From Planctomycetaceae bacterium (GTDB taxonomy: Bacteria; Planctomycetota; Planctomycetia; Planctomycetales; Planctomycetaceae), in the NCBI GenBank assembly GCA_002724415.1, contig PBOU01000188.1, positions 1 through 45,125 of the forward strand: DNA of 45,125 nucleotides, written 5' to 3'. Both the position numbers and the translations under genes were made by a program. The notes beneath the pieces were generated by a model, which searched no databases, had not been told where the DNA came from, and saw nothing but the letters and a program-made list of their open reading frames with translations. This document shows positions 2,570 through 18,264 of the stretch, piece after piece (position 1 is the stretch's first letter; every line of letters begins with the position of its first letter).

Positions 2570-4939
2570 CTAGAGCGAATCCTGGTTTTTCGCGTCGGAG
2601 CGAGAAACCGCCGCGGTCGATGATTTGCCGACGGCGCGTTTGAGCGCCTCAAGAACGCGGTCCGGAGATGCGAAGACACCGTCGAGCACAATCGGCTTGT
2701 CGGGTTGTCCAGCCGGATAAATGGCATAAAACGGAATCGCTTTGGCCGGGTTGCCGAGTTTGACCAGCAGGGCGTCGATATCGGGCGACTCTCGCGTCTT
2801 GTCGGCCTTGATGGCGACAATCTTGTTGCTGGTGATGAATTCGCGTGTGACTTCTGCGTCCAAGGCGACCGCCTCGTTGAGCTTGCAGGTGATTCACCAG
2901 TCGGCGGTGAAATCGATCAGGACCGTCTGGTTGGCGTCGAGATGTTCGGCAAGAGCCTCGTCGGAGTACGGGCTCCAGAACCCATCGTCGGGATGGTAGA
3001 AAGAGCCGAAGGAGACCAGTCCCATCAGAACGCCGAACGCGACGGCCTCTCCCCAGGCCCGGGCCCGACGGATTCTCGGCTGGGTCAATGGCACCCGACC
3101 GATCCACCAGAAGGCGGCCCAGAGGGAGAACAGGAACAGCATCGTGGGGACGACGATATCGGGATCGACACCCGAGAGCACAAACATCGGGTAGATGACG
3201 GTGCCCAACAGAACGAATCCCATCACGTGCTTGAAGGTCTCCATCCACATGCCGGGCTTGGGCAGGAAGGCGATCAGCCTGGGGAAAGCCCCGATCAAAA
3301 TGTAGGGAAATGCCATGCCCAGTCCGACACTCATCATGACGGCATAAGTGACCCCGATGGACTGGCTGACAGCCCAACTCATGGCCGGCACCAGCATCGG
3401 GCCGGTGCACGGTGTGGCCAGGATGGTGGTCAGGACACCCTTGGCGAAGGCGGCCCCGAGTCCCTCCTGCCCAGAGCTGTCCCCCGAACCACCGAAGCCG
3501 GGAACGGGGATTTCCCAGACACCCAGAAAACTCAATGCGAACACAAAGACGATGGAGGCCATCACGATGTTGAAGGCGGCACTGGTGAATTGTGATCCCC
3601 AACCGGCTCCGATCACTCCAACAAGCGTGGCCAACACCAGGAAGACGCTCATCAAGCCGAAAGCGAAGGACAGGTTCAGCAGAAAGGCCCGGCTACGGTT
3701 CTCACCGGCCTGGGTCACGAAGGACATGATTTTCAGGCCGATCACCGGCAGCACGCACGGCATGAAGTTCAGGATGAACCCGGCCACGAAAGCGATTCCA
3801 ATCCAACTCAACATGTTTTCCGAGTTGTCCGGTGATGCCGCGGTCACCTGGCCGGCGTCGTCATCGGTCGACGCGTTTTGCGAGCGGTCACTGGAGAGCT
3901 TGTCACCGGGGCCGACCTGTCCGAGGGCGAACGAGACGCGCCCTTTCAGGCAGCCCTTTTCGTCGCAGTACTGGTAGAGGACCTGTCCCCGTGTTCCGTA
4001 GCCCGAGTCGGTTGCGGCCTCGGTCACACGGTAGGTGCGGCTCCATGTCACCGTGCCATGGAACAGTTTTTGCGTCACGGCGCCGGTGGGCAACTGAATC
4101 GCTTTCTCTTCGAACGGCCGATCTTCGGCGAAACCGGCGTCGATGGCCGTGAGTCCGCGGAGACCCTTCATGGAAATGCGCGTGGGCAGGCCACCGTTGG
4201 CCTTGTCCTGGGTGAGAGCAAAGATGTGGAATCCATCGGTGAGGGTGGCTGTCAGTGACAGCGTGACGGTCTCGCCGGGCTGTGCCATTGGGGGGGACAA
4301 TTCGATGTGCCAGGTCACCGGGGAGGGGTGTTCACCGCCTCCGGTTTTTTCCGTTGGTGTGATGTCCAGGGTCAGCGGGTGCGAGTCGCTGGCGGCTTCG
4401 CCGGGGAATGCCGGTCCCTGCCCGAGGGCCACTGCCAGCGGAAAGGTTTCCGGTGGCAGGCAACCGCTTTCATTGCACATGCTCAGCGTGATGGAACCAC
4501 TGACGGTCGCCTTTGCATCGGCGGCCCGTTTGAAGACCTGCCGCCAAACGACGCGGCCGATGTGTTTCTCCTGGCGGAAATCGACCTTGCCGATCTTTGT
4601 GACCTCGACCTTGGGAGGATGGTCGGGTTGGGGGGCCGAGGTGGGAGCGTCCAGCCCGGCGTGGTCGGTGATCTTGATGGCTGTCGAATTGGGCTCGTCA
4701 CCAATCGAATAGGTGTAATACCCCTCGGGGACGATCACCTCGATGGCCAGTGTCACCGGGTCACCTGGCTTGGCCGTTGCCGGGTGCAGCGATGCGGTGA
4801 TTTTTGGTTCGGCGTTTGTCGTGGGGCCGTCACCCAGGTCTCCGAACGGCTGGAACAACTCGGGCCCGGTTGGCTGGTCCTGGGACCACGCCGGGGTGAC
4901 GACCAGCAAGAGTATGAGACAGGTCAGCCAGCGTGTCAT
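2570..4939 (-). CDS. dsbD: DsbD-like thiol:disulfide interchange protein, predicted selenoprotein (in-frame UGA read as Sec)
   Basis: Reading through one UGA (2896-2894) gives 789 residues. A signal peptide (residues 1-19) precedes two DsbD-alpha-like domains with Cys pairs C155/C160 (CNESGC) and C325/C330 (CDEKGC). A polytopic DsbD/CcdA membrane domain follows, with its two conserved Cys in NFMPCVLP (C395) and LATPCTGP (C511). The C-terminal thioredoxin domain begins DFTADW-U-ITCKLNE, so Sec682 takes the place of the first Cys and Cys685 is kept. The frame then runs 107 codons to TAG at 2570. DsbD moves electrons from cytoplasmic thioredoxin to periplasmic partners, including cytochrome c maturation; three heme c proteins are encoded nearby. 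Stopping at UGA would remove the whole thioredoxin domain. Start ATG 4939 gives a good signal peptide but has a weak ribosome binding site. Confidence 0.85.
2861..2876 (-). promoter_or_regulatory. Candidate bacterial SECIS hairpin of dsbD
   Basis: In the mRNA, CGAGGC - GGUC - GCCUUG forms a 6-bp stem (one G-U pair) with a four-base GGUC apical loop lying 24-27 nt after the UGA. Outer pairing of UGC with GCA could extend the stem across an internal loop. A G within the first two loop bases, at about this spacing, is the known requirement for SelB-binding bacterial SECIS elements; the Escherichia coli fdhF element also carries GGUC. Confidence 0.75.
2894..2896 (-). other. Predicted selenocysteine UGA codon (Sec682) in dsbD
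   Basis: The codon order is GAC TGG TGA ATC ACC TGC AAG, giving D-W-U-I-T-C-K. DsbD homologues have W-C-x-T-C-K at this site, so UGA replaces the catalytic first Cys. The frame upstream and downstream is one continuous DsbD homologue without a shift. Confidence 0.8.
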
Positions 4940-5076: not shown

Positions 5077-6327
5077 GTGTTCCGATTGTCCCTGGTCCTG
5101 TTTGTCCTGCCTGCGGCGTCGTTGGCCGCCCAGCCGCGGGTTGTCGCCTATGACGATCCGTTGCCCTACGGGCAGTCTCCGGTTGATTACCTGGGTGACG
5201 CGACTGCCGATCCTGTTGCGAGGTTGGATGCCCGGTTGGCCAGTGGCAAGACAACTCTGCGGGTCGTGCCGCGGCGCGGCTATCTCGACTCGGTTCTCGG
5301 TTGCCTGGATGTGCCGGTGTCTTCGCAGTTGCTGGTGTATTCCAAGACCGCGGTCAATCAACGCCTGGTCACGCCAAAGACGCCTCGAGCCATCTACTTC
5401 AACGACGAGGTGTCGGTTGCGTGGGTTCCCGGGACTGCCGAACTGGAACTCATGGCGTTCGATCCACTCAAGGGCGCGATGTTCTACGTGCTACAGCAGC
5501 CAGATGGGGCCGCAGGGGCACGGCCGAGGTTTCATCGGAAGTCGAGTTGCCTGGCGTGCCACATCGGCCGCACGACACTCTCGGTTCCCGGCGGCATCAT
5601 TCGTTCATTTCTGGTCGAATTGACCGGCAAGCCACTCGAGGGGTACTCGCGGGTGTCCGGTACGACGCCGATCGCCAACCGTTGGGGTGGCTGGTATGTC
5701 ACCGGTCGTTTGGGGCGTGTGACTCACATGGGCAACCTGGTCAACCGTGAGGAGAACCGTCGCCACCGTCGGGAGGCGTCTTTCCGAGCCAGTCTCGATC
5801 GGCTCGATTCCCTGGTTGATCTCACCGGTTACCCTGCCCCCCACAGTGATGTGGTCGCTCATCTCGTGCTTGACCATCGGCTCCATGGGCAGAATCTCAT
5901 CTCGCGTGTGACCTACGAGCATCGCCTGGGACGCCGTTCTGATGCCGAGGACCGGTTGTTGCGATACTTGCTGTTGGTGGGCTCCCCTCGATGGGCCACG
6001 CCTGTCAGTGGCACCAGCGATTTTTCCAGATGGTTTCAGCGGCAGGGACCACGGACGGCCGACGGTCGGTCACTGCGTCAGTTGGATTTGGCCGGTCGAC
6101 TGTTTCGTTACTCGCTCAGCCACCTCGTCTATTCCCCCCAGTTGGCTGCTATGCCCGCGGCGCCGCGCGGGCGGCTGGGACGGAGGCTGCAGGCGGTGCT
6201 GACGGGGCGTCCTGCTGGTGGACTTGAGAAGTTGCTCACTCCTGGCCAACGTGCCGACCTGCGTGACATCCTGGTGGAGACACGGGAAGATCTGCCACCG
6301 GAGTGGCGAATGAGTGCAAAGCCGTGA
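5077..6327 (+). CDS. Secreted mono-heme c-type protein of unknown function
   Basis: The start is taken as GTG 5077 because it begins a clean signal peptide (VFRLSLVLFVLPAASLAAQ); the frame is open further upstream to 4933 but reads as non-signal sequence. The product has 416 residues. A single heme c motif C-L-A-C-H begins at residue 158, inside RKSSCLACHIGRTTLSVPGG. No second heme motif or known domain is recognised. It is divergent from dsbD (137-bp spacer) and ends 11 bp before the PVC-type heme protein, so the two are probably cotranscribed. A role in periplasmic electron transfer or peroxide handling is only a guess. Confidence 0.72.
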   Translation: MFRLSLVLFVLPAASLAAQPRVVAYDDPLPYGQSPVDYLGDATADPVARLDARLASGKTTLRVVPRRGYLDSVLGCLDVPVSSQLLVYSKTAVNQRLVTPKTPRAIYFNDEVSVAWVPGTAELELMAFDPLKGAMFYVLQQPDGAAGARPRFHRKSSCLACHIGRTTLSVPGGIIRSFLVELTGKPLEGYSRVSGTTPIANRWGGWYVTGRLGRVTHMGNLVNREENRRHRREASFRASLDRLDSLVDLTGYPAPHSDVVAHLVLDHRLHGQNLISRVTYEHRLGRRSDAEDRLLRYLLLVGSPRWATPVSGTSDFSRWFQRQGPRTADGRSLRQLDLAGRLFRYSLSHLVYSPQLAAMPAAPRGRLGRRLQAVLTGRPAGGLEKLLTPGQRADLRDILVETREDLPPEWRMSAKP

Positions 6328-6338
6328 GGGATGGGACA

Positions 6339-9300
6339 ATGAAAGAGGCGAGGAGGCGGTGGTCGTGGTTGGCCTGTGGGTGGATTGGACTGGTTGTTGC
6401 CGGGTCGGTCCACGCCTTCGAGGAGTCTCCCACGACGGCCTCGGGTGTTCGTGTTGCCGATGGATTCGAGGTGACGCTGTATGCCGACGACAACCTGGCC
6501 AGCAACATTTACTCGATGACGATTGATTCTCGGGGGCGCGTGGTCGTTGCCGGTCCGCGTTACGTGAAAATCCTTCATGATCGTGACGGGGACGGTCGGG
6601 CCGAATCGTTTTCGACATTCTCGGATGTTCCCACCGGTGGTGCCCAGGGGCTGTTCTTTGATGGCAATGATCTGTTGGCGACCGGTGACGGCGCGCTGTG
6701 GCGTTTGCGTGATGCCGACCGGGACAGTCGCGCTGATGGTCCGCCCGAGCGGATCTTGAAGATCCGTGCAGGGGGTGAACATGACGCGCACGCGATCCGA
6801 CGTGGTCCCGACGGCTGGTTCTACCTGTTGGCCGGAAACGGGGCCGGTGTGACTGCTGACTACGCGTCGTTGAAATCTTCGCCGATCCGGTCGCCATCGG
6901 CTGGCACGCTGCTGAGGTTGCCGCCGACATTGCAGGGGAGCGAGATCCTGGTCGACGGTTTTCGCAACGCCTACGATTTTGCTTTCAATGGCCAAGGCGA
7001 CATTTTCGTTTACGACAGCGATGGTGAGCGAGACGTGTCCTTGCCGTGGTACCGTCCCACTCGTGTGTTTCATGCGCTCCCGGCACATGGAGCCGGATGG
7101 TTCTCTCGCAGTTGGAAGCGTCCGGGCTACTTTCTTGACATGCCTCCGGTGGTGGGGGCATTCGGTCGTGGATCGCCCACGGGGGTTGCCTGTTACCGGC
7201 ACACGGGGTTTCCGGAACAGTATCGAGGCGTGGTTTTTGCCTGCGACTGGACTTTCGGACGCGTGATGGCGGTGTCCCCTCCAGGACCGCGCATGTCGGG
7301 GTTGCCCGAACCGATCGAATTCATGACCGGCCGCGGGCATTTTGGGTTTGCTCCGACCGATATCGCCATCGGGCCCGACGGATCACTCTTCGTGGCGGTG
7401 GGGGGGCGTGGGACTCGCGGCAGCGTGTACCGGGTCACTCACCCGGCTTCGACCCGGTCTTCCCTTCCGCGTCGTGAAACCCCGATGGGGACGTGCCTGG
7501 GAGCGGCACAGCCGTTGGCGAGTTGGTCGCGATCGCGGTGGTTGCCGCTGGCAAGGAAACTGGGGGCGGCGGCATTTCATGCGGTGATTCTGGATGCGGA
7601 GTACACGGTGCCCCGTCGTGTTCGGGCGGTCGAGATCCTGGTCGACTTGTTTGGAGGCCCGGAGTTTGTGGAACTGGAAAAACAACTCGATGGTCTTCCG
7701 GCGGCCGTGCGGTCCCGGCTGGCGTGGGCGGTGGGGCGTGGACGACCCACCCATCCCGACGCCAGGCTCTTGAGCCGATTTCTGGCCGACGAGGATCCTC
7801 GAGTGGGCCGTGCGGCGTGCGAGGCCTTGCTGGGGATTTCAGGCCGCTGGGACTGGGACACCGTGGAATCGGGATTGTTGACCCAGTTGGACAGTCCCGA
7901 CCGCCGGACCCGGCAGGCTGCCGCATCGGTGGTGGCGCGTATGCCCGAGGCGGCCTGGCGACGGATCCGGAGTGAAGTGAGCCGACGGTCACCACGGGCG
8001 CGGGTGGCTGTCGCCCAGGGCGGTCGAGCGCATGTCCAGGGAGTTGATCGAGACGCGTTGTCCGTGGCACTGGAGGTGTTGACCACCAAGAACTCGCAAC
8101 AGGTCTCAGAGGGGCTCAAGCTCGATGCGGCTCGCCTGGCGCAGTTGGCACTGGGAGATGTGGGGCCGGTGCGAGGCCGTGCGGCAGTCTTCGACGGTTA
8201 TGGCGCGTTGCTGTCTCCCGCGGCACTCAGCCCGGTGGCGGGCGAGGTCAGCCGGGTGATCGATTCGGTGTTTCCCAGTGGCAGTCGCGAACTGGATGAC
8301 GAGTTGGCCCGGGTGACGGCGATGATCGCCTCGGCCGAACCACGGCTGTTGGCCAAGTTCCTCGCGAGCCCGGACCCGCGGTCTCACCCGGTGACAGATT
8401 TGCACCTCCTGATCACAGCCGCGCGGATCCCCCTGGCCAGGACCAGCGTTCAACGCGAGCAAACCGCCAGGATCCTTGTGGGACTGCAGGCGAAGATCGA
8501 CCGCGGTGGGTTGAACCAGGACAGCAACTGGGACGATCGCGTGGGTGAGTTGTACGTTGCCTTGTGCGAGAATGATCCCCGGTTGCCACGAGCTGTGCTC
8601 GAGACGCCCGGATTTGGTCTTCCGTCTCATGTGTTGTTTCTCGGCCGGATGTCCCGGCAGGATCGGGCACGGGCGCGGGAAGCATTCGTGGTGGCGATAC
8701 GCAAGGCGGGCGAGGACTACCCGTGGACGGGCGAGGTCGTCCGCTTGCTGGGTGAATCGGTGGATCCGAAGAGTGTCGACCTGTTGAGATCGGTCCACGA
8801 CCGGGCCGATGTCCGAGGGGCGGTTGTTGTGGAATTGGCTCGTCGTGCCACGGCCGTCGATCGCCAGCGATTTGTCAACGGCCTGGAGTCGTCGTCCCTT
8901 GAAGTTGTGGGGGCGAGCCTGTCCGCGTTGGCCAAGTTGCCGGCCGAGGTGACAGGGGAGGAGCAACTGGCACTGCTGGGAGTGGTGCGGCGGATGGGGG
9001 CAACTGCCCAGGAACATGGCCTGCGGTCCCGGGCCGTGATGTTGTTGCGTCGAAATACCGGGCGCCGGTTCGGTTTTGTGACCGGCAAGACGGGACGAAG
9101 GGCCCAGCAGAAGGCGGTCGCGGCCTGGACGGAGCACCTGGAGGCCAAGTATCCCGGTGAGGCGAGGAAATTGCTGGGGGCAGCGGCAGCGAGCCTGTCC
9201 GGCTTGAAGCGGCAACTGGAGGCAATTGACTGGGCCAGGGGTGATGTGACGCGGGGCAAGCGGATCTTCGCCAAACGCGGGTGCGTCCAATGTCACCAGG

Positions 9301-9644
9301 GGCGGCGGGCACTGGGGCCGGACCTGGCCGGTTCGGCAGGCCGGTTTTCCCGAGTCGACCTGTTCACCGCCATCGTGCTGCCCAGCAGGGATGTGTCACC
9401 CCGGTACCAGACCACGGTGGTCCAAACCGATTCCGGACAGGTGTACAGCGGGCTGATTGTCTACCAGTCGGTTGATGGTGTCACGCTGCGGACCGGAACC
9501 AATCGGACGATCCGGTTGGAACGCGGCGAGATTGAATTCCAGTCTCGCCGGTCCGAGTCGTTGATGCCGATGGGATTGCTCAAGGGGCTGGAAGATTCCG
9601 GATATGCCGACTTGTATGCCTATTTGGCGTCGTTGCGCAAGTAG
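6339..9644 (+). CDS. PVC-type heme-binding protein (beta-propeller, HEAT-like repeats, C-terminal cytochrome c)
   Basis: Start ATG 6339 gives a signal peptide (KEARRRWSWLACGWIGLVVA) and follows the upstream stop by 11 bp; a GTG at 6303 is in frame but overlaps the previous gene. The product has 1101 residues. Residues ~35-375 form a membrane-bound-dehydrogenase-like beta-propeller with repeated blades such as GPDGWFYLL and GPDGSLFVAV. About 500 residues of HEAT-like alpha-helical repeats follow. The last ~130 residues are the planctomycete/verrucomicrobial heme-binding domain, with C-V-Q-C-H from residue 982 and a Met-rich SLMPMG near the end as a possible axial ligand. Such proteins are exported and abundant in planctomycetes; the substrate, perhaps sugar or alcohol, is unknown. 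Confidence 0.86.
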   Translation: MKEARRRWSWLACGWIGLVVAGSVHAFEESPTTASGVRVADGFEVTLYADDNLASNIYSMTIDSRGRVVVAGPRYVKILHDRDGDGRAESFSTFSDVPTGGAQGLFFDGNDLLATGDGALWRLRDADRDSRADGPPERILKIRAGGEHDAHAIRRGPDGWFYLLAGNGAGVTADYASLKSSPIRSPSAGTLLRLPPTLQGSEILVDGFRNAYDFAFNGQGDIFVYDSDGERDVSLPWYRPTRVFHALPAHGAGWFSRSWKRPGYFLDMPPVVGAFGRGSPTGVACYRHTGFPEQYRGVVFACDWTFGRVMAVSPPGPRMSGLPEPIEFMTGRGHFGFAPTDIAIGPDGSLFVAVGGRGTRGSVYRVTHPASTRSSLPRRETPMGTCLGAAQPLASWSRSRWLPLARKLGAAAFHAVILDAEYTVPRRVRAVEILVDLFGGPEFVELEKQLDGLPAAVRSRLAWAVGRGRPTHPDARLLSRFLADEDPRVGRAACEALLGISGRWDWDTVESGLLTQLDSPDRRTRQAAASVVARMPEAAWRRIRSEVSRRSPRARVAVAQGGRAHVQGVDRDALSVALEVLTTKNSQQVSEGLKLDAARLAQLALGDVGPVRGRAAVFDGYGALLSPAALSPVAGEVSRVIDSVFPSGSRELDDELARVTAMIASAEPRLLAKFLASPDPRSHPVTDLHLLITAARIPLARTSVQREQTARILVGLQAKIDRGGLNQDSNWDDRVGELYVALCENDPRLPRAVLETPGFGLPSHVLFLGRMSRQDRARAREAFVVAIRKAGEDYPWTGEVVRLLGESVDPKSVDLLRSVHDRADVRGAVVVELARRATAVDRQRFVNGLESSSLEVVGASLSALAKLPAEVTGEEQLALLGVVRRMGATAQEHGLRSRAVMLLRRNTGRRFGFVTGKTGRRAQQKAVAAWTEHLEAKYPGEARKLLGAAAASLSGLKRQLEAIDWARGDVTRGKRIFAKRGCVQCHQGRRALGPDLAGSAGRFSRVDLFTAIVLPSRDVSPRYQTTVVQTDSGQVYSGLIVYQSVDGVTLRTGTNRTIRLERGEIEFQSRRSESLMPMGLLKGLEDSGYADLYAYLASLRK

Positions 9645-9718: not shown

Positions 9719-9991
9719 ATGTCCCAAGCGATTGCTGATCCTGAAGAACTGAAGCGGTTTGCCAATCTGTTGAAGCAGTTCAACACCGACCTGGTCGACC
9801 GCACCAATTCGTTGGCTGGCCACCTGGAGTCGCTGAGCGTGACGTGGCGAGACCAGGAGAACAAGAAGTTCGCCGAACAGTTCACCGAACAACTCAAGGG
9901 GATCAACCGTCTGGTCGAGGTCAACAACGCCTACATTCCCTTCCTGGTTCGCAAGGCCGCCCGGCTCGAAGAATACCTGCAACAACGGTGA
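9719..9991 (+). CDS. WXG100-like small protein A (putative type VII substrate)
   Basis: Start ATG 9719 is chosen for the ribosome binding site GGAGGG at 9708-9713; the longer frame from 9692 adds a non-homologous N-terminus. The product has 90 residues, all-helical by appearance and without a signal peptide. W43-R-D45 sits near the middle, between two amphipathic helices, where WXG100/ESAT-6 proteins have their W-x-G turn, and F51 follows at +8. Size, helix-turn-helix layout and the ATPase gene downstream argue for a WXG100-type secreted or structural partner. The Gly is replaced by Asp, so this is a divergent member. First gene of a four-gene cassette. Confidence 0.72.
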   Translation: MSQAIADPEELKRFANLLKQFNTDLVDRTNSLAGHLESLSVTWRDQENKKFAEQFTEQLKGINRLVEVNNAYIPFLVRKAARLEEYLQQR

Positions 9992-10062
9992 CCCCGGTCG
10001 GCTCACCTTGGGAAGTGAGCCGGGTGGCGGATTCACGAGACGATGAGTGGAGATGGGGCCAG

Positions 10063-10611
10063 ATGAACGCACCGGCTAACGTCCAATCGCTCGAGTCTGT
10101 TCGCGAGTTTCGTGGCCAGTTGCTGGCCTTTGGCGAGCAGGCCACCGACTGCCTGGAGTCGTTGCACGCGCAGGTCCATCGGATGATCGACTGGCTCGAG
10201 CACGACCGGCCGGCCTACTGGCAGCAACAGGTTCGTCGTGGGTACGACCAGGTGGCCGAGGCCCGTCTCAGCCTGCAGCAGTGCCAGATGAGAACAGTGG
10301 GAGATCATCGTCCTGCTTGCATCGAGGAGAAACAGGCCTTGTCCCGGGCGAAGGGGCGACTGGAATACTGCCGGCAGAAGATCGAGGTCGTTCGCCGCTG
10401 CCAGCGGGTGGTCGAGGAGGAGGCCAACCAGTTTCGTGGCCGTTGCGGCCAGATGGACAGCCTCGTGCAACGGGAAGTGCCTCGGATGGCCGGGTTGCTC
10501 GACCGCATCCTGGCCTCGCTGGAAGCCTACGTGGCGGTGGCGCCACCAGAGGATTTGCCGCCGCAACCGACGTCCAACGACACGATCGCTCCTGGTGGAG
10601 ACAACCGATGA
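10063..10611 (+). CDS. Coiled-coil protein of the type VII-like cassette
   Basis: ATG 10063 gives 182 residues; the frame is open upstream to 9844 but overlaps the previous gene there. The protein is almost wholly helical and rich in Arg, Glu and Gln. It has a Trp-bearing stretch (IDWLEHDRPAYWQQQV; W44 and W53), a long heptad-like coiled coil at ~45-140 and a closing helix LLDRILASLEAYVAV. It has no signal peptide or membrane segment. I have seen similar proteins beside WXG100-like genes in other bacteria, but no function is established. Its last four bases overlap the next start (ATGA), indicating translational coupling, so it may be a chaperone, adaptor or substrate of the ATPase. Confidence 0.75.
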   Translation: MNAPANVQSLESVREFRGQLLAFGEQATDCLESLHAQVHRMIDWLEHDRPAYWQQQVRRGYDQVAEARLSLQQCQMRTVGDHRPACIEEKQALSRAKGRLEYCRQKIEVVRRCQRVVEEEANQFRGRCGQMDSLVQREVPRMAGLLDRILASLEAYVAVAPPEDLPPQPTSNDTIAPGGDNR

Positions 10612-10841
10612 CGGTGGCCGATTTGCACACCGGCGCCGCCCAGCTGACCGACGCGCTGGTCCAACTCGAGGCGGCCTGGGGCCGCGTCCGACCGGCGTGG
10701 AACGACGAGACGAGTCGGCATTTCGAGGCCGAACATCTTGCGGCGATTTCGCCGACCATTCGCATGACTCTCGACGCCGTGAACCGCCTGGCCGATGTCC
10801 TGGCCAGGGCCGAACGCGAGTGCCAGGACGAGGAGCGCTAG
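10608..10841 (+). CDS. WXG100-like small protein B (putative type VII substrate)
   Basis: The gene starts at ATG 10608, overlapping the previous stop, and encodes 77 residues. It repeats the signature of protein A: W31-N-D33 with F39 at +8, so W-x-D-x5-F is shared (TWRDQENKKF versus AWNDETSRHF). A helix precedes and a helix follows the motif. It ends 9 bp before the ATPase gene. Two small helical proteins with the same turn motif resemble the EsxA/EsxB heterodimer of ESX systems; pairing here is inferred from sequence and position only. Confidence 0.68.
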   Translation: MTVADLHTGAAQLTDALVQLEAAWGRVRPAWNDETSRHFEAEHLAAISPTIRMTLDAVNRLADVLARAERECQDEER

Positions 10842-10850
10842 GCACACACC

Positions 10851-13800
10851 ATGTCGCAACTGCCGCCCCCCAAAGATCCTGGTGCCGCTGAGGCCCCATC
10901 CGGTCAACTGGAGCTTGCATGCCAGCAGGCGGTGTTGCAGAAGTTGCTGCAGGCCGTGGTTGATCGCGGGCATGCCGAGCAGGGCCTGAATGCCGAGCAG
11001 GTGGACTGGGCCAAGAGTGAGGACACGGAGTACTCGGCGGCTTGCCTGGCGCTGGACCAGAAGTTGGAAGACGATCGGGCCACGGTCATCCGGCAATATG
11101 ACCTGGTGCGTGACGAGAGTCTCTCGGGGATTGACGCTGAAATCTCGGCGACACAAATCGAGTACGACGACCGTGTGACGGTCCTCAAGGACCGCGCGGA
11201 AGAAGAAAAGGCTCGGATTGATCAGCGACGGGATGAGGATCGCTGGATGGTCCAGGCGGTGCTCGACGACGCGGCCGAGGACAGTCCCAAGCACAAGTTC
11301 GACAATTTCAAGGAGAGGCTGAAGTCCAACCGCGCACAACGAATGGCGGATTGGGAAGAATTGGCTGGCCAGGTCGAGCAGGTCGCCGGGCAACTGGCCA
11401 ACTGGGGATTGCCCCAGTCTCCCTCCACGAGCAACGGGTCGCGGCCTCCGAGTGATATCGACGATTGCCTGGATCACTTCATTGAGTGTGTCGACCGGGC
11501 CAATCATGACGTCCGGGTGATCCAACGACTCTGGTTGCCCCGGTTGCTTGTTGGTGGACGGGCCTTACTTCTGGGAGCGTTTTTTGCCGCTCTGATCGGC
11601 GCGCCGTTGATTCTCGGTGACGTACCATGGCGACTGGGGCTGCTGGAGAACCGGTCGCGGATGGAGGTTTCCGTCGGGATGTCATTGGGCGCAGCCCTGG
11701 TGGCAACTCTGGGGATCCTGGGCGTCCTGGCACTGGTGGTACGGAAACGCAGTCGGCGGCTGTGGGAACGGCTCGGAGGCCATGCGGCCGACGCTCGTCG
11801 TGCGCGACAGCACTGGCTGAAGGTCTCCCAGGAGGAACTTGGGACTCGACAGCAGGAGTTCCTTGGAAAACACGGACCGATTGTGCAACGCCGCAAACAT
11901 GCGATCGGCCGGATCGAGGAAGTCCAGGCGGACCAGGCCGAGGCTTTGGCCAATCGTCATGCGGCCGAGTTGGCAGCGGCACACGCCGAGTTCCCCGAAC
12001 GTCTCAAGGCACTTGTCGCGCGGCGGGAGAAGCAGGCGGCCGACTGCGAGTTGGAGCGACGCGAACGACTCGAGGAGATCGACCGCGAGTACCGGTCGAT
12101 CCGTGACAAACTGGCCAGCGAACACGGTCACCGGCTGGCGGTCCGCCGTGAGGAGACTCAGCGGACTTTTGCCCAGCTTGCAGGGGACTGGGAATCAGCC
12201 TGTGGTGAGTTCGATTCCAACACCCGCTCGATGATCTCCCAGTGTGACGACCTGTTTCGGCCCTGGGCTGAACTGGCAGATGCCGGATACACGCCACCTG
12301 CAGCGGTTCCTCCGGCCGTCAGGCTGGGGACGTTTGAGGTCAATCTTGCTGCTGTCCCCGGTGGGGTGTCCGAGGACGAGAGGCTGAAGCCGGCACGGAC
12401 GGTGATGTCGATGCCCGCGTTCCTGCCGTTTCCTGAACGGGCCAGCCTGTTGCTGGAATCTGATCGCCACGGCCGCGAGCCGGCGGTGGGAGTCTTGCAG
12501 ACCACCATGCTGCGGATGCTCACCAGCCTCCCCCCCGGCAAACTGCGAATGACGATCATTGACCCGGTGGGACTGGGTGACAATTTCTCCGCCTTCATGC
12601 ACCTGGCCGATTTTGATGAGTTGCTCGTTTCGGGGAGGATCTGGACCGAATCGAATCACATTGATCGTCAACTGGCCGATTTGACCGAGCACATGGAAGA
12701 CGTGTTCCAGACCTACCTGCGGAACCAGTTCGCGACGATCGAGGAGTACAACGAGTACGCTGGCGAGGTGGCCGAACCGTATCGGGTCCTTGTGGTGGCG
12801 GGTTTCCCGGTCAATTTCAGCGACAACGCGGTCCGTCGCCTGGTCAGCATTGCCTCCAGCGGTGCCCGCTGCGGAGTCTACACGTTGATCCATGTCGACA
12901 GTCGACAGCAATTGCCGCACAACTTTGATCTCGAGGATCTTCGAAGTCATGCGAATTGCCTGGCGTGGACGGCCGAGGGATTTCGGTGGCAGGATCCGGG
13001 CTTGGCCTGGCTGCCGCTGACGCTCGAAGCTCCTCCGGAACCCGCGGAGTTTGTAGAAATAGTCCGCCAGGTGGGTGAACACGCCCGTGACACGAGACGG
13101 GTCGAAGTGCCCTTTGGACGGATCGCTCCGAAACCCGACGAGTACTGGGGCCGGGACAGTCGCCGGAGTCTCGATGTGCCACTGGGCCGCGCGGGAGCGA
13201 CCAAGTTGCAAGATCTGCACCTGGGCAGCGGAACGTCCCAGCACGTATTGATTGCCGGAAAGACCGGGTCGGGGAAATCGAGTTTCCTTCACACGTTGAT
13301 CACCAACATCTCCCTGTACTACGGCCCCGATCAAGTCGAGTTTTACCTGATCGACTTCAAGAAAGGGGTCGAGTTCAAGACCTACGTCACCAACCGGTTG
13401 CCTCACGCACGCGTGGTGGCCATCGAGAGTGATCGGGAGTTCGGGTTGAGCGTCCTGGAGCGACTCGACGAGATGCTCTCGGAACGGGGCAACCTGTTTC
13501 GTCAGCACCATGTCCAGGATGTTGCCGGTTACCGCGACGCGATGCCCGAGGATCCTTTGCCACGGGTGTTGTTGATCATCGATGAATTCCAGGAGTTTTT
13601 TGTCGAGGACGACCGGGTCCATCAGCAGTCCTCGTTGCTCCTGGATCGCCTGATTCGCCAGGGACGTGCTTTTGGAATTCATGTTCTGCTTGGTTCACAG
13701 ACTCTCGGGGGAGCCTACTCGTTGGCACGCAGCACGCTGGGCCAGGTGGGTGTGCGGGTGGCGTTGCAGTGCAGCGAATCGGACGCGCACCTGATTCTCA

Positions 13801-14867
13801 GTGAGGAGAACACCGCCGCGCGCCTGCTGACTCGACCCGGCGAGGCCATCTACAACGATGCCAATGGCTTGCTGGAAGGAAATCATCCGTTTCAGATCGC
13901 GTGGCTGGACGAAGAGGCTCGAGACCAACGACTCGGGGTCCTGCGGGACAAGGCCGTGGCCGACGGGTTGGTTTCTGGTGAGATGGTGGTGTTCGAAGGG
14001 AACAAGCCTGCGGACGTGACGACCAGTCGCCCCCTGGCGGCGTGTTTGGCGAAGGCACCGGTGGCGGATTCGGTTAAGGCCCCCCTGTGCTGGGTTGGCG
14101 AGGCTGTTCAGATCAAGGCGTCTCCGGAACTGCGGTTTCGTCGACAAAGTGGCACGAACCTGGTTGTGGTGGGCCAGCAACAAGAGGAGGCGCTGGGAGT
14201 TCTGCAGGCGATCACGATTGCGCTGGCCGGGCAGTTGAATCCCTCGCAGGGCGGACGAATCGTAATCTGTGATGGCAGTGCCGAGGATGATCCGTTCAGC
14301 GAGGCGTGGTCGCGATTGGCCGATGAATTGCCCGGTGAAATGGAAGTGGTCCGTCCAAGAAAAGTGGCGGAGGCCTTGGGGAATTTGTCCGCGGAGGTTC
14401 TTCGACGGGACCAGGAGGATGACGAGGCTGCTCCGTCGGTCTTCCTGATTGTCCACGACCTGGGGCGATTCCGTGACGTCCGTCGAGATGAGGATGATTA
14501 TGGATTCGGCTCCGGTTTTGGTGATGACACGCCTGCCAGTCCCGCCCAGCAACTGGTTTCAATTCTGCGAGATGGGCCCGCGCTGGGTGTTCATACATTG
14601 TGCTGGTGCGACAGTTACAACAATCTCAATCGCTGGCTCAGTCCGCAGACGTTGCGGGAATTCGAGATGCGGGTGGCATTCCAGATGAGTGCATCTGATT
14701 CCAGCAACCTGATCGATTCGGCTGCTGCCAGTCGGCTGGGCAATCACAGGGCATTGCTGTACCTGGGTGAACAGGGAGGTGTCGAGAAGTTCCGACCGTT
14801 TGCCCCACCGACCGAGGAGTGGTTGCTCGACGTGGCTGGCCGGTTGCGCGGAACCGCAACCGCCTGA
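10851..14867 (+). CDS. FtsK/SpoIIIE-family membrane ATPase, EssC/EccC-like
   Basis: The product has 1338 residues. Residues 1-215 are a charged coiled coil. Two membrane segments (about 234-254 and 272-298) are followed by a second coiled coil to ~440. Three ATPase-like modules come next. The first (~510-705) and third (~1085-1330) lack a Walker A; the third has VVGQQQEEALG in its place. The middle one has an intact Walker A, GKTGSGKS, near residue 803 and a Walker B, VLLIIDEFQEFF, near 905. Several tandem FtsK-like modules on a membrane anchor are characteristic of EssC/EccC, the motor of type VII secretion, and two WXG100-like genes lie directly upstream. DNA translocation is less likely because no gamma (KOPS-reading) domain is seen. 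Confidence 0.85.
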   Translation: MSQLPPPKDPGAAEAPSGQLELACQQAVLQKLLQAVVDRGHAEQGLNAEQVDWAKSEDTEYSAACLALDQKLEDDRATVIRQYDLVRDESLSGIDAEISATQIEYDDRVTVLKDRAEEEKARIDQRRDEDRWMVQAVLDDAAEDSPKHKFDNFKERLKSNRAQRMADWEELAGQVEQVAGQLANWGLPQSPSTSNGSRPPSDIDDCLDHFIECVDRANHDVRVIQRLWLPRLLVGGRALLLGAFFAALIGAPLILGDVPWRLGLLENRSRMEVSVGMSLGAALVATLGILGVLALVVRKRSRRLWERLGGHAADARRARQHWLKVSQEELGTRQQEFLGKHGPIVQRRKHAIGRIEEVQADQAEALANRHAAELAAAHAEFPERLKALVARREKQAADCELERRERLEEIDREYRSIRDKLASEHGHRLAVRREETQRTFAQLAGDWESACGEFDSNTRSMISQCDDLFRPWAELADAGYTPPAAVPPAVRLGTFEVNLAAVPGGVSEDERLKPARTVMSMPAFLPFPERASLLLESDRHGREPAVGVLQTTMLRMLTSLPPGKLRMTIIDPVGLGDNFSAFMHLADFDELLVSGRIWTESNHIDRQLADLTEHMEDVFQTYLRNQFATIEEYNEYAGEVAEPYRVLVVAGFPVNFSDNAVRRLVSIASSGARCGVYTLIHVDSRQQLPHNFDLEDLRSHANCLAWTAEGFRWQDPGLAWLPLTLEAPPEPAEFVEIVRQVGEHARDTRRVEVPFGRIAPKPDEYWGRDSRRSLDVPLGRAGATKLQDLHLGSGTSQHVLIAGKTGSGKSSFLHTLITNISLYYGPDQVEFYLIDFKKGVEFKTYVTNRLPHARVVAIESDREFGLSVLERLDEMLSERGNLFRQHHVQDVAGYRDAMPEDPLPRVLLIIDEFQEFFVEDDRVHQQSSLLLDRLIRQGRAFGIHVLLGSQTLGGAYSLARSTLGQVGVRVALQCSESDAHLILSEENTAARLLTRPGEAIYNDANGLLEGNHPFQIAWLDEEARDQRLGVLRDKAVADGLVSGEMVVFEGNKPADVTTSRPLAACLAKAPVADSVKAPLCWVGEAVQIKASPELRFRRQSGTNLVVVGQQQEEALGVLQAITIALAGQLNPSQGGRIVICDGSAEDDPFSEAWSRLADELPGEMEVVRPRKVAEALGNLSAEVLRRDQEDDEAAPSVFLIVHDLGRFRDVRRDEDDYGFGSGFGDDTPASPAQQLVSILRDGPALGVHTLCWCDSYNNLNRWLSPQTLREFEMRVAFQMSASDSSNLIDSAAASRLGNHRALLYLGEQGGVEKFRPFAPPTEEWLLDVAGRLRGTATA

Positions 14868-14985: not shown

Positions 14986-17900
14986 ATGCCGGCTCCGATC
15001 GAAGTCCATTGCCCGGAATGTCAGGCCACGTTGAAGTTGAAGAACCGCGACGCGGTGGGGCGGAAGGTGCCCTGTCCGAAGTGCAAACAGCCCTTCGTGA
15101 TTGCACTTCCAGCCGAAGACGAACTGGAAGTGATCGACGATTTCGACGACTTTGATGAGTTCGACGATTTCGGCGAGTCGGATGATTTCGGTGATTTCGA
15201 GGAACCTGCAACGGGTGTGACTACGCCGGTTGCCGCGCCGAAAAAGTCGTCCGGGAAAAAGGTCTGGGTCATCGTCGGCTCGATCGTCGGTGTTGTGATC
15301 CTCGGCACCGGTGGGTTTTTCGGGGCCCGTGCGATGGGCTGGCTCGGTGGGAGCCAACAGGTCGTCCAGGACACGGCCCCGGCCGATGATCAAATGCCTG
15401 GAATGCCACCCGGCGGTGGAATGCCCGGAATGCCCGGTGGCGGGATGCCCGGGATGCCCGGGATGCCCGGTGGTGGGGCCTCGGCCCCCGGAGGGGCGCC
15501 GGGATCCGGAGAACCTCCGGATTCCGAAGAGGCCTCTCCGCCAGCGTCTGCAACCCAGGCGAAGAGTGACGACAATCCCAACGCCGAATTCGACACCCAC
15601 TGGTTGCCACCCAACGCCGAGGTGGTGGGAGCGTTCAAACTCGGAAAGATGTGGGATGCGGCGGTGACACAGCAGATGCTCAACGATCCAACTCTCGGGC
15701 CTGATCTCAAACAGGCGATTGTCGAGATGAAGAAAGAAACGATTCTGGGCCCCGAGGACGTCTCGAAGATCACCGTTGGTGTTGCCGGTCTGACGGATAT
15801 TGCCCAGGTGGCGCTGAGAGCACAGAACCAACAACTCGAGAACGATGATGCCGTCGAGAAGGTAGCGGCCGAAAAGCTGATTCCGACGATGGTTGTTCGG
15901 CTCCGCAGCGTGGTGACGTCCGCGCACCTGGCCGCCATGGGACAGAAGATGAAAAAGACCACGCTGGATGGCAAAACCGTCTTCGTTGTCCCCCAGGAAC
16001 CGAATAAACCGCGAGTGCTGGTCTACCAGGTCGACGACAAGACGCTGGTCTTCAGCGTCGAGCGGTTCATCAAGCAACTGATTGCCAACGGCGATCCCTA
16101 CACCCCACGGCCGGACCTGGCGTTTGTGGATGGCGACCAGGATTTCGTGGTCGCGGTGACCTTGCCAACCCCCATTACCCTTCCGCTGCCGCCGGGTTTT
16201 GCGACGTCGCCTGATGCGCAGACACCAGTCCTGCAGTCGCTTCTTGGTCTCAACGGAAAGCTCAAGGGACTGGGGCTGGGTATGGGGATGCTGGAGAACG
16301 GAAGCATGTCTCTGAAACTGCAGGGACTCTCGTCGGACGAGACCGGTTCCAAGTCGGGGAAAATGGCGCTGGAAGAGGCTCTGAAAATGGGCAAGCAGCT
16401 TCTGGCTCCCTTGAAACAGAACACGTTTATTGCCGAGCAGATCAAGCCGTTTGAAGCGGGTCTCGGAAAATCGAAGATCACCCAGGCCGGTCCGGAATTT
16501 GGGTTCCAGGCGGCATTCCCGTTGTCGTCGACACAAGGGGGGCTGCTGGCGGGTCTGCTGGCTCCGGCGATTCAGCAGGCGCGCGATGCGGCGCGCCGGA
16601 CACAGTGCGCGAACAACCTCAAGCAAATTGGCATTGGCATGTTCAGCCATCGTTCGGCGCGGCAGTCCTTCCCGGATGCCGCGATCCAGTCAACGGACGG
16701 CAAGCCGTTGCTGAGTTGGCGGGTGGCCATTCTGCCCTACATCGGTCAGAAACCACTTTACGACAAGTTCAAGCTCGATGAACCATGGGACAGCCCGACC
16801 AACAAGGCATTGGTTGAGTCGATCCCGCTGGTGTATGTCTGCCCGGGAGGAGAACTCCAGAAAGGCATGACGACCTACCGGTTGGTCTCCTCGGGCAAGT
16901 CCGCCTACAAGGACGGCAAGCGGGTCGCCGACTCGGTCCTGTCGAGCATGGGGGGCCCGGAAAGAGTGCCGCTGGTTGTCGATGCCGGTGATCAGCACGC
17001 GGTGGCCTGGACGGCCCCCGACGTGTTTGCAGCCTCCGGCGAAATCGGCAGCCACCACCTGGGCGGAGTCAACATGCTTTTTGCCGATGGCCACGTCGAC
17101 TTCTCGCCTGGCGACGGCCACGACGTTGCCGTTCCCATCGATCCCAATGATGACGGCACGAAGGACCTGGCCAAGTTCCAGGGGGCCTGGACGGTGACCG
17201 CAGCCAGCGTCGATGGCAACGCCGTTGCCAGCATGGTCAACCAGGTCTTCACCTTCCAGGACAACCAGTTGTTGCAACAGGTCAAGGCCGACCAACAACC
17301 GTTGCGGTCGAACTTTCAGATCGATTTTTCCGCCAATCCCCGGACGTTTGACTGGTTGCAGACAGGCAACCAGAAGTACCTGGGCCTGTACCAATTCCAG
17401 GGGAACAGCCTGAAGTTGACCGTGGCCTTGCCCGGCCAACCTCGCCCGCAAGGACTGAACGTGGCCGGCAAGGCGGTACTGCAATTGTCACTCAAGCGTC
17501 GTGCCGGCGTATCGGTTGCCAAGACCGATGCGTCACCGGAGAAACCGATGACATCGCCGGGGGCCAAGTTGACCGGCCAGGCCAAGGCTCTCTTCGAGGC
17601 CTTGAACAACCGGCGTCTGGTGTCGAGTTATCAGAACAAGAGTTTCTGGATCCAGTTGAATCCCGACGGGACAACCTTCGCGGGAATGGATGGTGCCGAG
17701 AGTACTGGAACCTACACGATCAAGAACCTGGAACTGGTCGTGGAGGGCGACAAGGGGGGCTTCCAGTCACTGCGGTTTTCATCGACCACCCCGAAGGTTG
17801 GCACCCTGTGCACGTTCATGATCAAGAAGACGGCGGATGGGACGGCCACGTTCGGTCCCGTGCAGTTGAAGATCCTGGAGATCCTGCCGGCGACACCCAA

Positions 17901-18264
17901 GCCGAAGCCGGCCAACGTGCTCGACGGCACCTGGCGAGTTGTTTCGGCTGTGGTTTCGGGCAAGCCGTCCGATTCGCTCAAGAACCGTGTCCTGTCGTTT
18001 GGCGAGGGCAAGGCGGCCTTGAATGTTGCCAAGCTCGATGCGATCGAATACCGGTTCTCCTACCAGGTCGACACCGAATCGGATCCGACGACGTTCCGGG
18101 TCACCAACGGAGACCGTGTGCTGCTTGCCGGTGTCTATCGTTTCCAGGGCAAGACGCTGCAGTTGTGCTTTGTCCGGGGCGACAAAACGCAGCCGCCCAA
18201 GGGCTTTGATGCCAAGGGGATTGGTCACACGTTGTACACCCTGGAACGGGTGGCTGTTCCCTGA
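14986..18264 (+). CDS. Zinc-ribbon / DUF1559 / lipocalin-like (TIGR03067-like) membrane protein
   Basis: ATG 14986 follows GGAG at 14974-14977; the open frame upstream overlaps the ATPase gene. The product has 1092 residues. An MJ0042-type zinc ribbon (C9, C12, C30, C33) is followed by an acidic Asp/Phe stretch, one membrane segment (~93-112) and a Met-Pro-Gly-rich linker (~137-170). A large unassigned domain comes next, then a DUF1559-like region around 525-700 with AAIQQARDAARRTQC-like sequence and the signature GGVNMLFADGHVDF. Two blocks like the planctomycete TIGR03067 domain occur at ~727-838 (FQGAWTVTAASVDG) and ~977-1090 (LDGTWRVVSAVVSG). It starts 118 bp after the ATPase gene, so a link to that cassette is possible but unproven. 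Confidence 0.8.
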   Translation: MPAPIEVHCPECQATLKLKNRDAVGRKVPCPKCKQPFVIALPAEDELEVIDDFDDFDEFDDFGESDDFGDFEEPATGVTTPVAAPKKSSGKKVWVIVGSIVGVVILGTGGFFGARAMGWLGGSQQVVQDTAPADDQMPGMPPGGGMPGMPGGGMPGMPGMPGGGASAPGGAPGSGEPPDSEEASPPASATQAKSDDNPNAEFDTHWLPPNAEVVGAFKLGKMWDAAVTQQMLNDPTLGPDLKQAIVEMKKETILGPEDVSKITVGVAGLTDIAQVALRAQNQQLENDDAVEKVAAEKLIPTMVVRLRSVVTSAHLAAMGQKMKKTTLDGKTVFVVPQEPNKPRVLVYQVDDKTLVFSVERFIKQLIANGDPYTPRPDLAFVDGDQDFVVAVTLPTPITLPLPPGFATSPDAQTPVLQSLLGLNGKLKGLGLGMGMLENGSMSLKLQGLSSDETGSKSGKMALEEALKMGKQLLAPLKQNTFIAEQIKPFEAGLGKSKITQAGPEFGFQAAFPLSSTQGGLLAGLLAPAIQQARDAARRTQCANNLKQIGIGMFSHRSARQSFPDAAIQSTDGKPLLSWRVAILPYIGQKPLYDKFKLDEPWDSPTNKALVESIPLVYVCPGGELQKGMTTYRLVSSGKSAYKDGKRVADSVLSSMGGPERVPLVVDAGDQHAVAWTAPDVFAASGEIGSHHLGGVNMLFADGHVDFSPGDGHDVAVPIDPNDDGTKDLAKFQGAWTVTAASVDGNAVASMVNQVFTFQDNQLLQQVKADQQPLRSNFQIDFSANPRTFDWLQTGNQKYLGLYQFQGNSLKLTVALPGQPRPQGLNVAGKAVLQLSLKRRAGVSVAKTDASPEKPMTSPGAKLTGQAKALFEALNNRRLVSSYQNKSFWIQLNPDGTTFAGMDGAESTGTYTIKNLELVVEGDKGGFQSLRFSSTTPKVGTLCTFMIKKTADGTATFGPVQLKILEILPATPKPKPANVLDGTWRVVSAVVSGKPSDSLKNRVLSFGEGKAALNVAKLDAIEYRFSYQVDTESDPTTFRVTNGDRVLLAGVYRFQGKTLQLCFVRGDKTQPPKGFDAKGIGHTLYTLERVAVP

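What the first reader, a model, noticed from the sequence alone, without database searches (positions are those of the whole stretch)
9719..14867. Compact type VII-like secretion cassette in a presumed diderm planctomycete
Four tightly spaced genes, some with start/stop overlap, encode a WXG100-like protein, a coiled-coil protein, a second WXG100-like protein and a membrane FtsK/EssC-like ATPase. ESX/T7SS systems are defined by WXG100 substrates plus an EccC/EssC motor and are best studied in Gram-positive bacteria and mycobacteria. No EccB, EccD, EsaA or EssB homologue is visible, so this would be a minimal and possibly new version working across a different envelope.
Basis: partly seen in the sequence, partly recalled or inferred. 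Interest (0 to 1): 0.78.

Follow-up and report, generated by a model that had tools for sequence, protein, structure and literature searches.

The report
Minimal type VII-like system in planctomycetes
Four genes encode a membrane-anchored motor and three small helical partner proteins that are inherited as a set across many planctomycete bacteria, probably a stripped-down relative of the type VII protein export machine; the general type was noted before in passing, but this phylum-wide, membrane-anchored form has not been studied.

Summary
Genes at 9719-9991 (A), 10063-10611 (B), 10608-10841 (C) and 10851-14867 (ATPase) form a compact cassette. A is a WXG100-type hairpin, but with W-x-D at the bend (31/31 relatives; C also 28/28) instead of W-x-G. 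B is a long single helical hairpin (AlphaFold pLDDT 89). The ATPase has two membrane segments and three tandem FtsK/EccC-like domains, only the middle one with a P-loop. Among 294 Planctomycetota genomes the ATPase occurs in 41 and A in 40 of those same 41, never without it. B and C follow the same pattern, even where the genes have scattered to as many as four chromosomal places. Close relatives share the locus synteny, and the ATPase tree roughly follows taxonomy, so this is an old chromosomal system, not a mobile cassette. It is not a canonical T7SS: YukC/EssB is absent in 17 genomes, YukD and other WXG100 proteins are absent here, and the YxxxD/E signal is missing. Its nearest known kin are Helicobacter HP0062/HP0066 and CoCoNuT-associated WXG100/FtsK operons; a 2012 footnote already mentions planctomycetes. 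I call it a membrane-anchored, cargo-less variant of that minimal system. Export of the small proteins is likely but unproven.

The parts
9719..9991 (+). Gene A: WXG100-type protein, 90 aa, with W43-x-D45-x-E47 at the hairpin bend
   Evidence: single copy per genome
10063..10611 (+). Gene B: 182 aa, one long helical hairpin (H10-76, H87-159) with a disordered tail; sits in the cargo-carrier position
10608..10841 (+). Gene C: short WXG100-like protein, 77 aa, with invariant W31-x-D33; start overlaps the stop of B (ATGA)
10851..14867 (+). ATPase: 1338 aa, coiled coil - two membrane segments - coiled coil - three FtsK/EccC-like domains
11544..11600 (+). Predicted membrane segment 1 of the ATPase (residues about 232-250)
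   Evidence: hydropathy scan; two segments in 89 of 101 relatives
11685..11741 (+). Predicted membrane segment 2 of the ATPase (residues about 279-297)
13257..13280 (+). The only P-loop (GKTGSGKS, residues 803-810), in the middle ATPase domain
   Evidence: T-G-S-G-K-S invariant

Best explanation
The four genes encode a dedicated, minimal type VII-like export device. The ATPase sits in the inner membrane by two helices and probably forms a hexamer driven by ATP hydrolysis in its middle domain. A, C and the long hairpin B form helical complexes that the motor binds and pushes across the inner membrane. In distant plasmid-borne relatives the gene in the position of B carries a nuclease, so B is best read as a carrier that has lost its cargo or is itself the exported product. 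Shown: gene set, families, domain layout, single P-loop, predicted membrane segments, co-inheritance, purifying selection. Inferred: hexamer, complex formation, direction and fact of export. Unknown: how anything would cross the outer membrane.
For: The closest solved relatives of the ATPase by sequence are EccC, YukB and FtsK. The predicted C-terminal 856 residues align with all three ATPase domains of EccC 4nh0 (716 residues, Z 25.7, rmsd 12.8, so domain positions differ) and with EssC/EccC D2-D3 (Z about 26). A is homologous to HP0062 and EsxB. Two membrane segments in 89 of 101 ATPases. Co-occurrence: A in 40 of 41 ATPase genomes and 0 of 253 others (p about 1e-48 without phylogenetic correction). 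B in 24 and C in 25 of 25 carriers tested, 0 of 6 non-carrier family members. In complete chromosomes the genes are scattered yet all kept, e.g. G105 at 0.23, 0.71, 1.94 and 2.66 Mb. No other gene family is regularly adjacent. Helicobacter plasmid L134 has, in the B position, a 340 aa protein with a WHH/colicin-DNase end followed by a SUKH immunity protein. LXG toxin plus two WXG100-like Lap targeting factors is an experimentally known parallel (PMC9600955).
Against: No secretion data. The YxxxD/E export motif is absent from all 31 A homologues. No EssB/YukC and no outer-membrane partner was found. The CoCoNuT-associated ATPases of this type lack membrane helices and may act inside the cell. 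A, B and C are single copies with no effector repertoire, unlike known T7SS. Homology of B to the nuclease-bearing plasmid proteins is positional, with at most weak profile support.
Confidence: 0.55

Rival explanations
1. An intracellular conflict or defence module: the ATPase and WXG-like proteins sense or act on invading nucleic acid, as proposed for the CoCoNuT/TerY-P associated operons, and nothing is exported.
For: Distant homologues on plasmids sit with VWA, PP2C, Ser/Thr kinase, CARF and nuclease genes. The CoCoNuT paper describes the same gene types (PMC11090510). PADLOC models SspH and mad8 match the motor domain.
Against: In planctomycetes the system is chromosomal, syntenic in close relatives, roughly vertical in the tree, single copy, without nuclease in B and without defence-gene neighbours. 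The ATPase is membrane-anchored by prediction. A, B and C give no PADLOC match.
Confidence: 0.2
2. A DNA- or envelope-related FtsK-like machine: the membrane motor pumps DNA or organises the septum, and A, B and C are scaffold or tether proteins.
For: The motor domain also aligns with FtsK (Z 27 over 264 residues). Planctomycete division is unusual (general knowledge).
Against: Sequence E-values favour EccC/EssC over FtsK by 20 or more orders of magnitude. Three tandem domains and WXG100 partners are T7SS-type features. Patchy distribution (41 of 294) argues against a core cell-cycle role.
Confidence: 0.12
3. A canonical type VII secretion system with the other subunits encoded elsewhere in the genome.
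For: EccC-like motor and WXG100 proteins; in these genomes even the four core genes can be scattered.
Against: YukC absent from all 17 carriers while the B. subtilis control rang. YukD absent from 15 of 17, including the own genome. WxD in place of WxG. The EccB search was uninformative because its control did not ring.
Confidence: 0.07

Closest known systems
Helicobacter pylori HP0062 / HP0066 (minimal WXG100 secretion system; HP0062 structure 3FX7)
   Same: A aligns with HP0062 over its full length (E 6e-12), with the same WRD bend (PMC3397514), in a cluster with an FtsK/SpoIIIE protein.
   Different: The planctomycete set adds B and C in fixed order, has a membrane-anchored motor in most members and lies in a different phylum. 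The H. pylori genes were not compared directly here.
CoCoNuT type III-A / TerY-P associated WXG100-EssC-like operons (PMC11090510; Anantharaman et al. 2012)
   Same: Three ATPase domains with only D2 active, an N-terminal coiled coil, two WXG100-type proteins and a coiled-coil protein.
   Different: There the ATPase lacks membrane helices, the coiled-coil protein carries a nuclease and defence genes flank it. Here there are two membrane segments, no nuclease and no defence genes.
'Solo WXG' systems listed for planctomycetes and other phyla in Zhang et al. 2012 (PMC3482391, Table 1 note 6)
   Same: The one-line description (distinct YueA-like ATPase, three HerA/FtsK domains, only the middle active) fits exactly.
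T7SSb LXG effector with Lap1/Lap2 and EsxA (PMC9600955)
   Same: A long helical carrier accompanied by small WXG100-like targeting factors and an EssC-type motor.
   Different: No toxin domain, no LXG family match, no EssB; no homology of B to LXG domains was shown.

Membership tests
Canonical type VII secretion system (T7SSa/T7SSb) | EccC/EssC-type ATPase with three tandem FtsK domains | tested here: met
   but far below the NCBIfam equivalog cut-offs (111 versus 778 bits for EssC)
Canonical type VII secretion system (T7SSa/T7SSb) | WXG100 protein with W-x-G at the hairpin bend | tested here: not met
   Family membership holds, but the motif is W-x-D in 31/31 A and 28/28 C and W-x-G in none
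Canonical type VII secretion system (T7SSa/T7SSb) | EssB/YukC (T7SSb) | tested here: not met
   PF10140 in 0 of 17 carrier genomes, B. subtilis control positive
Canonical type VII secretion system (T7SSa/T7SSb) | EsaB/YukD ubiquitin-like protein | tested here: not met
   PF08817 not in the own genome; in 2 of 17 carriers, unlinked
Canonical type VII secretion system (T7SSa/T7SSb) | EccB (T7SSa) | tested here: inconclusive
   PF05108 in 0 of 17, but no control genome rang
Canonical type VII secretion system (T7SSa/T7SSb) | EccD, EccE, MycP, EsaA, EssA | not tested
Canonical type VII secretion system (T7SSa/T7SSb) | YxxxD/E export motif on substrates | tested here: not met
   0 of 31 A, 1 of 28 C (not C-terminal)
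Canonical type VII secretion system (T7SSa/T7SSb) | ATPase-dependent secretion of WXG100 proteins | not testable with these tools
   needs experiment
Minimal WXG100-FtsK system (HP0062/HP0066, CoCoNuT-associated type) | HP0062-like WXG100 protein with WRD/WxD bend | tested here: met
Minimal WXG100-FtsK system (HP0062/HP0066, CoCoNuT-associated type) | Three FtsK/HerA domains, only the middle one with Walker A | tested here: met
Minimal WXG100-FtsK system (HP0062/HP0066, CoCoNuT-associated type) | Coiled-coil partner between the WXG genes (with nuclease in CoCoNuT type) | tested here: inconclusive
   B is a long hairpin in that position without nuclease; homology to the plasmid proteins is weak
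Minimal WXG100-FtsK system (CoCoNuT-associated subtype) | ATPase without membrane helices | tested here: not met
   two segments in 89 of 101 planctomycete ATPases; none in Caballeronia and Deinococcus relatives
Minimal WXG100-FtsK system (mobile, as described in 2012) | Mobile element | tested here: not met
   flanks syntenic in L053 and L102, single copy, tree roughly by taxon

The most novel reading that the evidence does not exclude
A phylum-wide, vertically inherited protein exporter of a diderm lineage, made of only four parts and without effector repertoire. It would be a housekeeping or surface-building relative of the type VII system that works across a two-membrane envelope.
Probability: 0.35. 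Interest if true: 0.78.

Novelty: new variant of a known kind. Interest (0 to 1): 0.55.

Why it matters
Secretion-system surveys have excluded ESX/T7SS from diderm-LPS bacteria as absent there (PMC4793230). A four-part, always co-inherited set gives a very small candidate T7SS-like machine whose parts can be expressed and tested one by one. It also offers a model for the long-open role of HP0062/HP0066 in Helicobacter. Because the parts stay together even when their genes scatter, the list of required components is unusually clear.

Tried and rejected
Repeat-like matches of the A profile inside B suggested a double WXG protein; the AlphaFold model shows one long hairpin instead. A Foldseek search with B gave only generic coiled coils, no match at E <= 0.001. 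A hunt for further conserved neighbours found none; a Ser/Thr kinase lies within 9 kb in 14 loci, in mixed orientation and position. 'ATPase without WXG partners' was first read as a second, orphan class, then rejected because all such genomes checked carry A, B and C elsewhere. The phage collection gave only partial FtsK-type matches. The EccB search was uninformative. The Anantharaman et al. 2012 paper could not be read, so its statement is taken from PMC11090510 and PMC4978471. Promoter and terminator scans gave no more than shuffled sequence.

Full report
Observation. B and C overlap by ATGA. On single sequences the WXG100 calls are marginal (A 26.0 bits against a cut-off of 27.3; C 17.5). 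Alignments settle A: all 31 homologues match PF06013, and the profile finds HP0062, EsxB and EsxA among solved structures. C is weaker but its profile finds S. aureus EsxA.

Distinctive residues. A has an invariant W43-x-D45-x-E47, C an invariant W31-x-D33. None of the 59 A and C sequences has W-x-G. The same WRD bend is reported for HP0062 (PMC3397514). No A homologue has the YxxxD/E motif.

In three Phycisphaerales-type relatives B ends in an Imm33-like domain. In a Helicobacter plasmid the gene in the same position ends in a WHH/colicin-DNase nuclease followed by a SUKH immunity protein. In Caballeronia it is a 436 aa protein in a locus with VWA, CARF, PP2C and kinase genes; [quoted passage not shown] B of the window has no such domain. 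The positional match is clear, homology is not proven.

ATPase. Coiled coil, two membrane segments, coiled coil, then three FtsK-type domains. Only the middle one has a P-loop, and it is invariant. The closest solved relatives by sequence are EccC, YukB and FtsK. The predicted C-terminal part spans all three EccC domains. The plasmid relatives from Caballeronia and Deinococcus have no membrane segment in the ATPase.

Distribution and co-inheritance. In 294 Planctomycetota genomes the ATPase occurs in 41 and A in 40, all inside the 41; the exception is an 80%-complete genome in 880 contigs. Where the ATPase had no partners beside it, A, B and C turned up elsewhere: for example in the complete chromosome G105 at 0.23 (ATPase), 0.71 (A), 1.94 (C) and 2.66 Mb (B), and in G024 at 5.92 (ATPase), 2.50 (A) and 4.30 Mb (B and C). 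Each genome has essentially one copy of each; weak second C hits are mostly the A gene itself. Six relatives of the same family without the ATPase lack A, B and C. Among 80 loci with enough upstream DNA, 58 have A-B-C-ATPase together, 17 have none upstream, 4 have C only, 1 has A and B. No other family is regularly adjacent.

Inheritance. About 20 kb around the cassette is syntenic with L053, and the upstream half with L102, its nearest relatives; dN/dS against L053 is 0.045 (A), 0.125 (B), 0.14 (C) and 0.17 (ATPase). The ATPase tree (quick, midpoint-rooted) groups roughly by order and family, with the plasmid sequences on very long branches. This argues for old chromosomal inheritance with many losses, not for a mobile cassette.

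Not a canonical T7SS. YukC was absent from 17 carriers with a working control. YukD was absent from 15 of 17, including the own genome. The EccB search had no working control. PF06013 found only A in the own genome. EccD, EccE, MycP, EsaA and EssA were not tested.

Prior knowledge. Zhang et al. 2012 mention planctomycete 'solo WXG domains' with this ATPase type and call them mobile versions of T7SS. The CoCoNuT paper describes the nuclease-bearing, helix-free version and cites Anantharaman et al. 2012 for stand-alone versions. H. [quoted passage not shown] A 2016 survey leaves ESX out for diderm-LPS bacteria as absent. Within the open-access library searched, no dedicated study of the planctomycete form was found.

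Reading. The best-supported account is a membrane-anchored export motor with three helical client or adaptor proteins, by analogy with EssC plus WXG100 and with LXG/Lap complexes (PMC9600955). The gene set, anatomy and co-inheritance are shown. Complex formation, export and any outer-membrane step are inferred. A defence role inside the cell is the main rival.

Noticed in passing
L054, L060, L034, L104 and others, ATPase C-terminus: 23 of 101 ATPases, not the window's, end in a conserved short tail such as DDLSQFTIL, DLEEFSIL or DDLSSWTVL, possibly a docking peptide for an unknown partner.
   Followed up: partly
L105:7705-8769, L117:1188-2225, L119:1486-2520: B homologues of Phycisphaerales-type genomes carry a C-terminal Imm33-like domain (PF24719).
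   Followed up: partly
L134:4749-9151: Helicobacter sp. NHP19-012 plasmid: WXG100-like gene, nuclease-tipped helical protein, SUKH immunity gene, small gene, FtsK-like ATPase in a row; looks like a toxin-carrying version of the same module.
   Followed up: partly
L136:6150-6578: In Deinococcus the gene just upstream of a helix-free ATPase encodes a 142 aa protein with one strong membrane segment, perhaps the membrane anchor as a separate gene.
   Followed up: no
G188:C99:75145-75372 and G056:C1:145443-145655: Two carrier genomes have an unlinked YukD-family gene (PF08817), perhaps part of another system.
   Followed up: no
L034, L040, L041: Where the ATPase is alone, it is flanked by a DksA-like gene and a DegT-type aminotransferase gene in three related genomes.
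   Followed up: no
window 14986-18264: Downstream gene: DUF1559 (SBP_bac_10) protein with a zinc-ribbon-like start and GGMPGMP repeats, a common planctomycete type; judged unrelated to the cassette.
   Followed up: partly
window 6303-9641 and 2897-4939: Upstream genes: a DUF7133 protein with a CxxCH haem motif, and a DsbD-type protein on the minus strand; syntenic in L053 and L102.
   Followed up: partly
L137 (MT836827.1): An unverified 10 kb 'bacteriophage' record from human faeces encodes a distant relative of the ATPase over 42% of its length; may be misassigned bacterial DNA.
   Followed up: no
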